From the NCBI GenBank assembly GCA_002842395.1, contig PHCV01000003.1, positions 119,421 through 183,420 of the forward strand: a stretch of DNA of 64,000 nt. Reading direction: 5' to 3'. The notes below the pieces were generated by a model. That model ran no database searches. It saw only the letters and a list, made by a program, of their open reading frames with translations, and was not told the DNA's origin. Positions 2,930-58,751 of the stretch are shown piece after piece. Within the stretch, counting starts at the first letter, position 1, and the number at the start of each line of letters is the position of its first letter. A program made the translations under genes and the position numbers. This DNA comes from Betaproteobacteria bacterium HGW-Betaproteobacteria-11. Lineage in GTDB: Bacteria > Pseudomonadota > Gammaproteobacteria > Burkholderiales > Rhodocyclaceae.

Positions 2930-5900
2930 GACAGAAGTTTGCCGTGAAGATATTGCAATGAATAGGTCTCCAGCCCGGAATGCCGCATTCCGGCGCAGGC
3001 CGCGCGGGCGCCTTCCACCGTGGTGAACAGCGTGACCTTGGCGCCCAGGGCGGAGGTGCGGATCGAGCGCGAGTCGATGATGGCGGTGCGTTTTTCCTCG
3101 ACGGTATTGACGATCAGCGAAATGTCCCCGTTCTTGATCATGTCCACGATATGCGGTCGTCCTTCGGTCACCTTGTTGACCGTCTCCACCGGCAGGCAGG
3201 CCGCCGCGATCGCGGCGGCGGTGCCCCGCGTCGCGACCAGCGAAAAGCCCAGCTGATGCAACTGCGCGGCAACTTCCACGGCCTTGCCCTTGTCGGCCGG
3301 CTTGACGCTGATGAAAACCCGCCCCGCCGACGGCAGCTTCGTCCCCGCGGCGAGCTGCGACTTGACGAAGGCTTCGCCAAAACTGCGGCCGATACCCATG
3401 ACTTCACCGGTCGATTTCATTTCCGGACCAAGGATGGTGTCGGTGCCGGGGAACTTGGCGAAGGGGAAGACAGCCTCCTTCACCGAATAATACGTCGGGA
3501 TGACTTCCTGCGTCACCCCCTGCTCGGCGAGCGAACGACCGGCCATGCAGCGCGCGGCGATTTTCGCCAGCGGCAGGCTGGTGGCCTTGGACACAAAAGG
3601 CACGGTGCGCGAGGCCCGCGGATTGACCTCCAGCACATAAACCACGTCCTCGCCCCCTGCCGCGCCGCTTTTCTGGATGGCGAACTGTACGTTCATCAGG
3701 CCGACCACATCGAGGCCCCGCGCCATCATCGCCGTCTGCCGCCGCAACTCGTCCTGGATGGCCAAGGACAGGCTGAACGGGGGCAGGGAACAGGCCGAGT
3801 CACCCGAATGCACACCAGCCTGCTCGATATGCTCCATGATGCCGCCGATGAGTACCTGGGTCCCGTCGCACAAGGCATCGACATCGACCTCGGTGGCATC
3901 GTTGAGAAAACGGTCGAGCAGTACCGGAGAATCATTGGATACCTTGATCGCGTCGCGCATGTAGCGCTCGAGATCTTTTTGCTCGTGGACGATTTCCATC
4001 GCCCGTCCGCCAAGCACATAGGAGGGCCGCACCACCAGCGGATAGCCGATCTCGGCGGCCAGGCGCAGGGCATCGGCCTCGGTGCGCGCGGTGCGGTTGG
4101 GCGGCTGTCGAAGACCGAGATCATGGAGCAGCTTCTGGAAGCGCTCGCGGTCTTCGGCGGCATCGATCATGTCCGGGCTGGTGCCGATGATGGGCACGCC
4201 ATTGGCCTCGAGGTCGCGGGCACGCTTGAGCGGCGTCTGGCCGCCAAACTGGACGATCACGCCTTCCGGTTGCTCGACGTGGACGATCTCGAGGATGTCC
4301 TCCAGCGTCAGCGGCTCGAAGTAGAGACGATCCGAGGTGTCGTAGTCGGTGGATACGGTTTCCGGGTTGCAATTGACCATGATCGTTTCATAGCCGTCCT
4401 CGCGCATCGCCAGCGCCGCATGGACGCAGCAGTAATCGAACTCGATGCCCTGTCCAATGCGGTTGGGGCCGCCGCCCAGCACCATGATCTTGCGCCGCGT
4501 GGTCGGTTGCGCCTCGCACTCGTCCTCGTAGGTCGAGTACAGGTAGGCGGTGGAGGTGGCGAATTCGGCGGCGCAGGTATCGACCCGTTTATAGACCGGA
4601 CGAATGCCCAGCGCATGGCGCCGTCCGCGCACCAGGGTTTCCGTCGCCGTCTCGCCAGCGCCGAGTTTCTGGCCGATGCGCCGATCGGAAAATCCCTTGC
4701 GCTTGAGGCTGCGCAAGGCATCGTGATCCAGATCATCGAGCGTCTGGCCGGAAAGCCAGGTTTCCGTCCTGACGAGATCCTCGATCTGGACCAGAAACCA
4801 GGGGTCGATCCGGGTCAGGGCAAACACCTCGTCCAGCGCATAGTCCTCGCGAAATGCCTGGGCGACGTACCAGAGGCGTTGCGGACCGGGATTCGCCAGT
4901 TCGTGGTTGATCTCTTCGTGATCCGCGTCGATCTCGTCGAAACCATAGACGCCCGTCTCCAGCCCGCGCAGCGCCTTTTGCAGCGACTCCTGAAAAGTGC
5001 GGCCGATCGCCATCACCTCGCCCACCGATTTCATCTGCGTCGTCAGCCGGTTGTTGGCCTGCGGAAATTTCTCGAAGGCAAAGCGTGGAATCTTGGTCAC
5101 CACGTAGTCGATCGTGGGCTCGAACGAAGCCGGCGTGGCGCCGCCGGTGATGTCGTTCTGCAACTCGTCCAGGGTAAAGCCCACCGCGAGCTTGGCGGCG
5201 ATCTTGGCGATCGGGAAGCCGGTGGCCTTCGAGGCCAGCGCCGAAGAGCGCGAGACCCGCGGGTTCATCTCGATCACGATCATCCGGCCGTCCCGCGGAT
5301 TGATCGCGAACTGGACGTTGGAACCCCCCGTGTCGACACCGATTTCGCGCAGCACCGCGATGCTGGCATCGCGCATGATCTGGTATTCCTTGTCGGTCAG
5401 CGTCTGCGCCGGCGCAACGGTGATCGAGTCGCCGGTATGCACGCCCATCGGGTCAAGGTTTTCGATCGAGCAGACGATGATGCAATTGTCCTGGTGATCG
5501 CGCACCACTTCCATTTCGAACTCTTTCCAGCCGAGCAACGATTCCTCGATCAGCAGTTCGCGGGTCGGCGAAGCCTCGAGGCCGCGCTTGCAGATTTCGG
5601 CGAATTCTTCCTGGTTGTAGGCGATGCCGCCGCCCGAGCCGCCCATGGTGAACGAGGGCCGGATAATCGTCGGGAAACCGAGGGCCGCCTGCACCTGTTG
5701 CGCTTCCTCCATGCTGTGCGCCACGCCAGAATGAGCGGAAGCCAGGCCGATGCGGGTCATCGCCTGCTTGAATTTTTCGCGATCCTCGGCCTTGTCGATC
5801 GCCTCGCGCGAGGCGCCGATCATCTCGACGCCGTACTTTTCGAGAACGCCATGTTTGGCCAGATCAAGCGCGCAGTTGAGCGCCGTCTGCCCGCCCATGG

Positions 5901-57125: not shown

Positions 57126-58751
57126 ATGCCGCTTCTGATTCCTTCTTCTGAATCCGGCCCGCTACCGGGCGGATGGAGGCTGTTTGTCATCTTGCTGAGT
57201 ACGCTCTGGTTGCTTGCCGGCGTACTTGGCCACGATCCATGGAAGCCCGACGATGCGATTCATATCGATGTCGCCTGGAATATGGTCAATGCACCATGGC
57301 CCACCTGGCTGGTACCCCGCCTTGCCGGCGAGCCGTGGATGGCTGCTCCGCCGCTTTACCCTTGGCTGGCCGCGCTCTGCGGACAGCTCTTCGGCAACCT
57401 GTTGCCTTGGCACGATGCGGCACGCCTGGCCTCGCCGTTGATCGCAGCCGCCTTGCTGGTGCTTCTTGCGGCAAGCGCCAAGCGCCTGTCGGGGCACGCC
57501 ACTGCGCTGGTTGCGCCACTGCTTGCCATCGGTACGCTCGGCTTCCTGATCCCGTTGCACGATGCACAACCGATGATCATCGCCCTTGTCGGTTTTGCGC
57601 TTTCCCTTTACGGCCTTATCCGCTGGCTGGAGCGACCGATCCCAGGTGGCCTGCTGCTGGGCATGGGAATCGGCATAAGTTTCCTCGGCACTGGACTCGA
57701 CGGCATCGTCATTCCCGCTTCAAGCAGTCTGTTCGTACTGCTGCATCCAGCCTGGCGCCGGCAGGGCAACCGCATCACCACGCTGGCCTTGTTGGTTGCG
57801 GCCGCCGTCGCTTTCATACTCATCCTGCCGTGGCCATGGCTCCTGGCGCGGCAGTCCCCCGCCCTGTTCGACCTCTGGTGGAAATCCGAGCAAGCCAGCA
57901 TCGCCCTGCGCGGAGCCCCGACTCGCGCCCATCTCGAATTGCTGCTCTGGGCCAGTTGGCCCTTGCTGCCCCTTGCCTGCTGGAACCTCTGGCTTGAACG
58001 TCGCCGCCTGCCACAGGCGGAAACATGGCTGCCTTTGATCACCAGCAGCGTGGCCCTGCTGGTGTTTTGTCTCGGCGCGCCAAGACCCATCACCGTGCTG
58101 CCTGCGCTGCTTCCCCTGCTTCTGCTCGCTGCCGCCGGTACAGGCAAGTTGCGACGCGGTGCGGCAAATGCCCTGGACTGGTTTGGTGTGATGACCTTTT
58201 CACTGCTCGCCGCACTGATCTGGCTCGGCGGCATTGCCATGCTGAGCGGGGAGCCGGCCCGCGTGGCCAAGAATTTCAGCAAACCCGCACCGGGTTTTAT
58301 CGCCGAGGCATCCGTCATCACCCTTGTTCTGTCCATCACCGTCACGGTCGGCTGGATTGTGATCCTGCTGCGCACTCCTCGCTCTCCCTCGCGCCCGATT
58401 CTGCGCTGGAGTATCGGGCTGACCACCGTCTGGGTTCTTGTAGCCATGCTCTGGCTGCCCTGGATCGATTATGGGAAAAGTTACCGTAGTGTCAGCGCCG
58501 ACTTTCACCGTGCGCTCGGCGGTTCCCGGGACTGCATCGCGCGACGCAATCTAGGGCCGGCGCAGCGCGCCTCGCTTGATTATTTCGATGGCATTCGCAC
58601 CGTCAGCGGCACCGCCGCCCGGGAATGCAGCTACCTGATTGTCCAAACCACGGCAGAAGCGGGAAAAGACCTACCGGGCTGGCGCCTGGTCATGCAGACC
58701 ACCCGCCCCGGCGACAAGTCCGAACGGTTGCGCCTGTACCGGCGCGATTGA
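57126..58751 (+). CDS. GT39/ArnT-like membrane glycosyltransferase
   Basis: Polyprenyl-phosphate-sugar-dependent transferase family. The 541 residues have about ten membrane helices and a first periplasmic loop with HDPWKPDDAIHIDVAWNM and LAGEPWMAAPPLYPWLAAL, the acidic-loop pattern of PMT/ArnT enzymes. The soluble C-terminal domain includes YRSVSADFHRALGG (residues 453-460 come from an antisense repeat copy) and a tail with GTAARECSYLIV. Substrate and acceptor are unknown. It lies 75 bases after the rpmE terminator region. Confidence 0.8.
   Translation: MPLLIPSSESGPLPGGWRLFVILLSTLWLLAGVLGHDPWKPDDAIHIDVAWNMVNAPWPTWLVPRLAGEPWMAAPPLYPWLAALCGQLFGNLLPWHDAARLASPLIAAALLVLLAASAKRLSGHATALVAPLLAIGTLGFLIPLHDAQPMIIALVGFALSLYGLIRWLERPIPGGLLLGMGIGISFLGTGLDGIVIPASSSLFVLLHPAWRRQGNRITTLALLVAAAVAFILILPWPWLLARQSPALFDLWWKSEQASIALRGAPTRAHLELLLWASWPLLPLACWNLWLERRRLPQAETWLPLITSSVALLVFCLGAPRPITVLPALLPLLLLAAAGTGKLRRGAANALDWFGVMTFSLLAALIWLGGIAMLSGEPARVAKNFSKPAPGFIAEASVITLVLSITVTVGWIVILLRTPRSPSRPILRWSIGLTTVWVLVAMLWLPWIDYGKSYRSVSADFHRALGGSRDCIARRNLGPAQRASLDYFDGIRTVSGTAARECSYLIVQTTAEAGKDLPGWRLVMQTTRPGDKSERLRLYRRD
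58482..58505 (-). repeat. Dispersed 24-bp element, copy in glycosyltransferase gene (antisense)
   Basis: The minus strand reads AAAGTCGGCGCTGAC, ACT, ACGGTA, with two end changes. In the gene frame it encodes YRSVSADF, the same phase as the antisense folC copy (RRGASADF). Confidence 0.75.

What the first reader, a model, noticed from the sequence alone, without database searches (positions are those of the whole stretch)
4645..58505. A dispersed bipartite 24-bp sequence recurs about every 4.5 kb on both strands
Fourteen accepted copies and one doubtful copy share AAASTCGGCGCTGGC, three free bases, then ACGGCG (positions 4645, 6823, 10086, 13400, 18557, 22494, 25277, 26215, 31502, 36092, 40762, 48912, 52160, 58482; doubtful 14277). 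Six contain the exact 14-mer AAAGTCGGCGCTGG, for which chance predicts about 0.0005 in 64 kb on both strands. Copies occur in and between unrelated genes. Two (10086 and 52160) are identical over 24 bases with different flanks. The 15 + 3 + 6 layout suggests a recognition site read by a protein. Candidates are a DNA uptake sequence for natural competence, a chromosome-organisation motif, or a very small spreading repeat. I do not recall this sequence being described.
Basis: partly seen in the sequence, partly recalled or inferred. Interest (0 to 1): 0.9.

Follow-up and report, generated by a model that had tools for sequence, protein, structure and literature searches.

The report
New DNA uptake-like sequence with dialects
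About 500 close copies of a 24-letter DNA word are scattered over this betaproteobacterium's genome, and related genera carry their own variants of it; it likely works as a self-recognition password for taking up DNA, a device so far described mainly in two other bacterial families.

Summary
AAASTCGGCGCTGGC-NNN-ACGGCG (up to 3 mismatches) occurs 14 times in the window (shuffles 0.01) and 498 times in the 2.34 Mb genome, against 1 for the reversed pattern. In 463 kb examined, copies lie on both strands, one per 4.6 kb, more evenly spaced than chance and about fourfold enriched between genes. In a sister species they are conserved at third codon positions (92% against 59% in flanks). At 9 of 11 intragenic sites with outgroup orthologues the alignments are ungapped, so the word was written by substitution, not insertion. 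Forty-six of 297 genomes of the family are dense in it; genera differ in the central letters between nearly fixed outer boxes (AAAGTC...ACGGCG): dialects. None of 384 genomes of other families of the order was dense. This resembles DNA uptake sequences (Neisseriaceae DUS, Pasteurellaceae USS), but is longer, sparser, without inverted pairs, and in another family. ComEC and type IV pilins are present, also in motif-free relatives; two pilin groups tested do not track the motif, a FimT-type pilin was not tested family-wide, and the receptor is unknown. Phages carry the word at lower density. Uptake is inferred, not shown.

The parts
4645..4668 (-). copy, 0 mismatches, inside carB (K-L-G-A-G-E-T-A)
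   Evidence: a copy at the same place in sister G001 and in the Rugosibacter MAG locus L094
6823..6846 (-). copy, 0 mismatches, inside carA; absent from sister G001 at the same place
10086..10109 (+). copy, 0 mismatches, 3 bp after a predicted gene end
13400..13423 (+). copy, 1 mismatch, intergenic, next to an unrelated dispersed repeat
14277..14300 (-). copy (reader: doubtful), 2 mismatches, inside recN; also a copy in sister G001
18557..18580 (+). copy, 1 mismatch, directly after a predicted stop codon
22494..22517 (+). copy, 1 mismatch, intergenic, 14 bp after a predicted gene end
25277..25300 (-). weak copy, 4 mismatches (all transitions)
26215..26238 (-). copy, 1 mismatch, inside cysS; also in G001
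31502..31525 (+). copy, 1 mismatch, inside a predicted gene; also in G001
36092..36115 (+). copy, 1 mismatch, inside a predicted gene; also in G001
40762..40785 (-). copy, 1 mismatch, inside a predicted gene; also in G001
48912..48935 (-). copy, 0 mismatches, inside leuC; identical in G001
52160..52183 (-). copy, 0 mismatches, intergenic, 55 bp beyond the 3' end of the fadD-like gene
58482..58505 (-). copy, 3 mismatches, inside a predicted gene; also in G001

Best explanation
The repeat is a genome-wide DNA word shared, in genus-specific dialects, by several genera of one betaproteobacterial family, and it likely acts as a DNA uptake sequence: a surface receptor, probably on the type IV pilus, would bind it so that competent cells preferentially take up DNA of their own kind. 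Shown: density, both orientations, even spacing, enrichment between genes, conservation at third codon positions, ungapped outgroup alignments at most tested sites, and dialects with nearly fixed outer boxes AAAGTC and ACGGCG exactly 12 bp apart and a genus-specific centre. Inferred: biased uptake followed by recombination back into the chromosome, repeated over time, turns near-matches into matches in places that tolerate it (molecular drive), which would produce this pattern. That one receptor contacts both boxes, 18 bp apart from start to start, and that the centre sets the dialect, is speculation.
For: Density and both strands: 498 copies, 268/230, control 1; all 9 genomes of the genus have 296-518. 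Under-dispersed spacing: CV 0.77 against 0.99 random, p=0.0026 in G000; CV below 1 in five further dense samples, p under 0.05 in four of them. Intergenic 38 of 101 where about 9 are expected, again in five further species, p from 0.03 to 5e-10. Third codon positions: 103 of 112 identical in the motif, 686 of 1170 in flanks, 10 of 16 in the free spacer. Origin in place: 9 of 11 intragenic sites ungapped in every outgroup alignment found (six of these rest on one alignment each); residue identity 0.38 at the site against 0.71 in control stretches. Dialects. No replichore polarity seen: 88 plus-strand sites of G007 fall 9 9 8 8 8 7 7 14 9 9 per tenth. Machinery: ComEC in 46 of 46 dense-motif genomes, 11 genes with a pilin start in G000. 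Point-mutation origin, molecular drive, even spacing and family-level types are reported for USS/DUS (passages of PMC1939737 and PMC1626085; of PMC3630211).
Against: No uptake experiment exists. ComEC is as common without the motif (246 of 251). ComP_DUS-family pilins occur in 28 of 30 genomes tested with and without the motif, and one of the two lacking a match, G069, is motif-dense. A standalone pilin group is in 43 of 46 dense and 198 of 251 other genomes. G000's minor-pilin operon differs from that of its sisters (PilV- and PilW-type proteins group with G018's, not with theirs), yet the motif is the same. Density is about a fifth of the near 1 per kb reported for USS/DUS (PMC1626085). No inverted pairs: the closest opposite-strand pair in 463 kb is 877 bp apart. 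The excess of perfect over singly mismatched cores holds for only 3 of 6 cores tried. Gaps at intragenic sites are somewhat commoner than in control stretches (48 of 219 against 60 of 429), all of them at carA and carB. Phage contigs carry exact copies.
Confidence: 0.7

Rival explanations
1. A binding site for an intracellular chromosome-organising, segregation or recombination protein (a Chi-, KOPS-, matS- or nucleoid-protein-like site) that must be spread over the genome.
For: Even spacing and genome-wide spread fit a housekeeping DNA site; presence in phages fits a Chi-like protective site, and a density of about 1 per 4.6 kb resembles that of E. coli Chi (recalled).
Against: No strand polarity or regional bias seen, unlike Chi, KOPS, matS or parS (recalled). 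Not dense in 251 of 297 genomes of the same family, which a housekeeping function would hardly tolerate. 21 specified positions is far longer than such sites (recalled). Dialects with a changing centre would be unusual for an essential site.
Confidence: 0.17
2. A very small mobile or copied repeat (REP-, MITE- or RAYT-like) that spreads by insertion.
For: Hundreds of similar copies resemble copied elements; one phage contig has four copies spaced 316 bp, a tandem array holding the motif (L322). In carB half of the outgroup alignments (39 of 78) have a gap at the site.
Against: Nine of 11 intragenic sites are never gapped in outgroups, and the gaps at carA and carB in the rows printed are shorter than the 8-residue site. 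Sister-species differences are mostly point changes. No hairpin beyond chance, no conserved flank.
Confidence: 0.04
3. A self-marking or defence-related sequence (for example protection from a nuclease or restriction system) shared by host and phages.
For: Phages carry exact copies, among them in two portal genes and three DNA methyltransferase genes.
Against: The 120 viral stretches chosen for holding one copy have only 75 further sites in 1.12 Mb, 1 per 15 kb against 1 per 4.6 kb in the host. No known system of this kind was looked for.
Confidence: 0.06

Closest known systems
Neisseriaceae DNA uptake sequence (DUS, ATGCCGTCTGAA) and its dialects
   Same: Genome-wide repeat on both strands, enriched in permissive and intergenic DNA, genus-level dialects; same GTDB order (recalled); ComP_DUS-family pilins present in most genomes tested.
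   Different: 24-27 bp bipartite instead of 10-12 bp; about 1 per 4.6 kb; no opposite-strand pair closer than 877 bp; another sequence; receptor not shown to be ComP.
Pasteurellaceae uptake signal sequence (USS, AAGTGCGGT core plus AT-rich flanks)
   Same: Site of more than one part, evolves by point mutation, two family-level types; the common 10-mer AAAGTGCGGT (PMC1626085) resembles AAAGTCGGCG by eye.
   Different: Another class of Proteobacteria, GC-rich second box instead of AT-rich flanks, about five times sparser. The likeness of the 10-mers was not tested and may be chance.
E. coli Chi, KOPS, matS (recalled)
   Same: Dispersed recognition sites.
   Different: Shorter, polar or regional; here no polarity was found.
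REP/MITE small repeats (recalled)
   Same: Hundreds of dispersed copies.
   Different: Palindromic and inserted; here no palindrome, and ungapped outgroup alignments at 9 of 11 sites.

Membership tests
DNA uptake sequence (DUS/USS kind) | Strong over-representation on both strands | tested here: met
   498 against 1, 268/230
DNA uptake sequence (DUS/USS kind) | Core with more perfect than singly mismatched copies | tested here: inconclusive
   perfect against single-mismatch excess over the reversed control: AAAGTCGGCG 67/51, AGTCGGCGCT 68/none, AAAGTCGGCGCT 55/37; but AAGTCGGCG 86/125, GTCGGCGCTGG 59/67, the 15-mer 39/47. Whole pattern 27/45
DNA uptake sequence (DUS/USS kind) | Arises by point mutation in permissive DNA, many copies in genes, enriched between genes | tested here: met
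   exception: gapped alignments at carA and carB
DNA uptake sequence (DUS/USS kind) | Even spacing, no polarity | tested here: met
   spacing not significant in G018 (p=0.15); polarity judged from plus-strand sites of one genome
DNA uptake sequence (DUS/USS kind) | Shared by relatives, with dialects | tested here: met
DNA uptake sequence (DUS/USS kind) | Frequency near one per kb | tested here: not met
   one per 4.5-5.3 kb; descriptive, not a functional criterion
DNA uptake sequence (DUS/USS kind) | Promotes uptake of DNA by competent cells | not testable with these tools
   needs an experiment
DNA uptake sequence (DUS/USS kind) | Competence machinery present | tested here: inconclusive
   ComEC domain in 46 of 46 dense genomes but also in 246 of 251 others, and in the E. 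coli control; DprA, ComEA, PilQ not searched
Neisseriaceae DUS proper | DUS core sequence GCCGTCTGAA | tested here: not met
   consensus differs
Neisseriaceae DUS proper | Inverted pairs acting as terminators | tested here: not met
   closest opposite-strand pair 877 bp; fold no better than shuffles
Neisseriaceae DUS proper | ComP is the receptor | tested here: inconclusive
   ComP_DUS-family pilins in 28 of 30 genomes irrespective of motif, missing in dense G069; type differs within the genus
Pasteurellaceae USS proper | AAGTGCGGT or ACAAGCGGT core with AT-rich flanks | tested here: not met
   no AT-rich flank, different core
REP/MITE repeat | Insertion into target DNA | tested here: not met
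   (9 of 11 sites)
Chi/KOPS | Strand polarity along the replichore | tested here: not met

The most novel reading that the evidence does not exclude
A third, independently evolved family of DNA uptake passwords, in Rhodocyclaceae-type betaproteobacteria, built as a modular code: two outer boxes (AAAGTC and ACGGCG, exactly 12 bp apart) kept almost unchanged, and a central box that has been rewritten genus by genus (GGCGCTGGC, GGTGCTGGC, GACGCTGGN, AGCNNTGGC, AGTCSCNGC) and so defines who exchanges genes with whom; phages carry the password as well.
Probability: 0.6. Interest if true: 0.9.

Novelty: new variant of a known kind. Interest (0 to 1): 0.82.

Why it matters
Sequence-specific DNA uptake has been worked out in two families, Neisseriaceae and Pasteurellaceae. 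A third system in another betaproteobacterial family, with several dialects on one scaffold, would allow open questions (how a receptor and hundreds of genomic sites change together, what selects for specificity, how it shapes gene exchange between species) to be tested by comparison. It would also give a marker for recent DNA exchange: motif-rich islands in motif-poor genomes.

Tried and rejected
Receptor search. ComP_DUS (PF16732) pilins occur in 28 of 30 genomes with and without the motif; the two without are dense G069 and motif-free G088. Pilin inventories were fetched for 9 of 13 genomes considered: G000, G001, G007, G092, G018, G103, G070, G264 and, only in part, G066; G016, G062, G084 and G050 were listed but not fetched for this. 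In the clustering three groups are present in all six canonical-dialect genomes (G000, G001, G007, G070, G092, G103): a mixed PilE/PilA group that also holds G018, G066 and G264; a FimT-type group that also holds G264; and a standalone pilin group that also holds G264. The standalone group (alignment A1) was scanned through the family and is not diagnostic: 241 of 297 genomes, by my count of the listing 43 of 46 dense and 198 of 251 others. MSHA-type pilins were not found in the loci fetched for motif-dense G070.

ComEC presence as a discriminator: fails, it is nearly universal.

RNA families in the window: none at gathering score. Hairpin or terminator function: the two strands of the consensus fold no better than shuffles (z -0.80 and 0.34).

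Dialect search in another family: G653 and G633 (f15) had 22 and 19 matches, but no over-represented word of this type in 68 and 33 kb fetched. G215 and G066, same family, gave none in 100 and 200 kb; G047, with 72 copies genome-wide, gave none among its top words in 200 kb and 5 sites.

Not done: a species tree of the family, so the number of gains and losses is unknown; search for DprA, ComEA, PilQ.

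Full report
What was checked. The pattern AAASTCGGCGCTGGC-NNN-ACGGCG with up to 3 mismatches occurs 14 times in the window (6 plus, 8 minus), against a shuffle mean of 0.01. In the genome in which the window lies (G000, 2,339,259 bases in 25 contigs, 97% complete) there are 268 forward and 230 reverse copies; the reversed pattern gives 1 and 0.

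Which organism. Among 80 named loci the closest carB DNA is a MAG labelled Sulfuritalea sp. (L095, 82%); the congener G001 has 84.8%; the Rugosibacter sp. MAG L094 has 76.6% DNA and 87% protein identity in its best segment. Only L094 and L095 hold the motif with up to 3 mismatches (5 in 23 kb and 4 in 16 kb); the other 78 loci, of 5 to 23 kb, do not. NCBI places Rugosibacter in Sterolibacteriaceae, Betaproteobacteria; that GTDB puts this group into Rhodocyclaceae, order Burkholderiales, is recalled.

The site. The logo of 101 copies from 463 kb of G000 (C1:1-183420, C2:1-280000) shows sharp borders, no conserved flank beyond an A or two before and one A after, and a preference RRN in the spacer. 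Mismatch classes 0 to 5 hold 27, 45, 17, 12, 10, 15 copies against 0, 0, 0, 0, 3, 13 in the reversed control. Whether perfect cores outnumber singly mismatched ones depends on the core chosen: yes for 3 of 6 tried, no for 3.

Where copies lie. By a codon-based gene prediction of my own (no standard gene finder was at hand), 62 of the 101 lie inside genes, 38 between genes and 1 at an edge; random 24-mers fall between genes in 6.4% (C1, 33 sites) and 10.3% (C2, 68 sites), so about 9 are expected. Inside genes 34 are on the gene's strand and 28 on the other; the commonest frame reads K-V-G-A-G-x-T-A. Intervals average 4.5 kb with CV 0.77, random 0.99, p=0.0026. The nearest opposite-strand pair is 877 bp apart. 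In the one-contig relative G007 the 88 plus-strand copies with up to 1 mismatch are spread evenly over the chromosome; of its 98 minus-strand copies only 12 were listed, so these were not mapped.

Conservation and origin. Of 101 sites of G000, 18 had an aligned counterpart in the 245 kb of sister species G001 that were fetched: 15 are sites there too, 1 is a weakened copy, 1 falls in a gapped alignment, 1 is absent. Read the other way, of 48 sites of G001, 19 had a counterpart: 15 sites, 2 weakened, 2 gapped. Third codon positions in the motif are identical in 103 of 112 cases, in the flanks in 686 of 1170, in the free spacer in 10 of 16, from 18 ungapped sites of which 16 are in genes. So the letters of the DNA word, not only the protein, are kept, and the spacer is free. 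Against outgroups (stretches of G018, G066, G084, G047 and 78 named carB loci), 11 of 62 intragenic sites had orthologues, 219 alignments in all. At 9 sites every alignment is ungapped, but six of these have one alignment only. At carB 39 of 78 and at carA 66 of 75 alignments are ungapped; gaps in the printed rows are shorter than the 8-residue site. Overall 48 of 219 are gapped against 60 of 429 in control stretches 40 residues away. Residue identity at the site is 0.38 against 0.71 in the controls. The word was thus written mainly by substitution into permissive protein segments. The carB copy is present in L094 and in none of the other loci aligned there, including those labelled Azoarcus and Accumulibacter.

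Spread among relatives. All 9 genomes of the genus are dense (296-518 copies). Of 297 family genomes, 46 have at least 100 copies of either the canonical pattern or the bare outer boxes AAAGTC-N12-ACGGCG: 9 of 9 in g1, 11 of 12 in g2, 10 of 11 in g36, 9 of 11 in g11, 4 of 4 in g63, and one genome each in g9, g55, g62; these counts are mine from the listings. Intermediates are G047 (72), G259 (59), G287 (44 by the outer boxes), G136 (32), G080 (25). Most of the rest have 0-5, some 6-31. In 399 genomes of the order, 15 of them from the family, none of the 384 others is dense; the highest are G653 (22) and G633 (19).

Dialects. Counts of over-represented words put the repeat at the top in G000, G062 and G043 and, with other letters, in G018 (AAAGTCAGTCSCNGC-RRS-ACGGCG, 44 sites in 200 kb), G136 (AAAGTCAGCNNTGGC-GNN-ACGCCG), G069 (AAAGTCGACGCTGG) and G016 (AAAGTCGGTGCTGGC); G043 ends in ACGGCA. 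In G001, G084 and G653 other repeats head the list; G066, G215, G633 and G047 show no such word. The centres of G018 and G136 differ in several letters from the canonical one, those of G069 and G016 mainly in one. Samples were 77 to 400 kb where the repeat was found, and the consensus letters for G136, G069 and G043 rest on 12 or 13 anchor matches each. Density is 4.5-5.3 kb per site in G018, G001, G016, G062, G043, each with intergenic excess (p 0.03 to 5e-10) and CV below 1 (p 0.005 to 0.15); sparse G047 has 5 sites in 200 kb.

Machinery and receptor. ComEC's domain is found in 292 of 297 family genomes, including all 46 dense ones. G000 has 11 genes with a pilin start. The receptor was not found: see Tried and rejected. 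In G000 the minor-pilin operon near the MSHA cluster has PilV- and PilW-type proteins that group with those of G018 and not with those of its sisters G001 and G007, whose operon lies in the same neighbourhood.

Phages. In all 120 (1.12 Mb) there are 75 sites beyond the one that selected each stretch, 1 per 15 kb. Of 87 exact sites classified in the 80 listed, 58 lie in predicted genes and 29 between genes. Nine proteins at or next to the motif were compared with PHROGs: two portal proteins (likely of related phages), three DNA methyltransferases, an anti-repressor, one with an endolysin-like part, one minor head protein beside the motif, and one without match. So true phage genes carry it, at lower density than the host. 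A prophage resident in a dense host could acquire sites by the same drive; this was not tested, nor were the hosts identified.

Judgement. Of the kinds of dispersed DNA words known to me, uptake sequences fit best: substitution origin, permissive placement, even spacing, lack of polarity and dialects within a family. [quoted passage not shown] PMC4212676 (passages), on a transformable earthworm symbiont, discusses DUS of Neisseria and Pasteurellaceae only. One search found no paper with GTCGGCGCTGGC or its complement, none with 'DNA uptake sequence' and Rhodocyclaceae, one on Neisseria; some searches showed listings only, some of them a part of the hits, and none of the listed titles names an uptake sequence in this family. 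The library holds only openly licensed PMC papers. Function is inferred. I file it as a new variant of a known kind, with the reservation that uptake and receptor remain to be shown.

Noticed in passing
window 13269-13400: A separate repeat of about 100-130 bp with 25 further matches (79-100% identical) listed elsewhere in G000 and none listed in its congeners (capped list); it lies just before the motif copy at 13400.
   Followed up: no
G001 C1 (loci L051-L063): A 39-copy CRISPR-like repeat with TGTAGCTCCCTCTCTCACCCCGG.
   Followed up: no
G080 C104, C66, C557; G079 C50; G106 C1:1.46-1.50 Mb: Clusters of motif copies in genomes that have few otherwise, which look like DNA acquired from motif-rich donors.
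   Followed up: no
G000 C19:323-331 kb, G001 C3:177-185 kb, G007 C1:2791-2800 kb: The minor-pilin operon beside the MSHA cluster is of a different type in G000 than in its two sisters: likely operon exchange.
   Followed up: partly
L322:883-2216: An IMG/VR contig with five motif copies, four of them spaced exactly 316 bp: a tandem array holding the motif.
   Followed up: no
L311, L338, L363: Exact motif copies inside phage DNA methyltransferase genes in three different viral contigs.
   Followed up: no
G264 (g36), G176 (g11), G259 (g2): Single species that have almost no or few copies within motif-dense genera although ComEC is present: natural losses to compare.
   Followed up: partly
window 37005-37100: ARAGORN reports a 96-base tRNA-Thr that overlaps a predicted protein gene on the other strand (35921-37198); one of the two may be wrong.
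   Followed up: no
window 42148-44895: A FimV/HubP-type polar landmark protein, linked to type IV pili in other bacteria (recalled).
   Followed up: no
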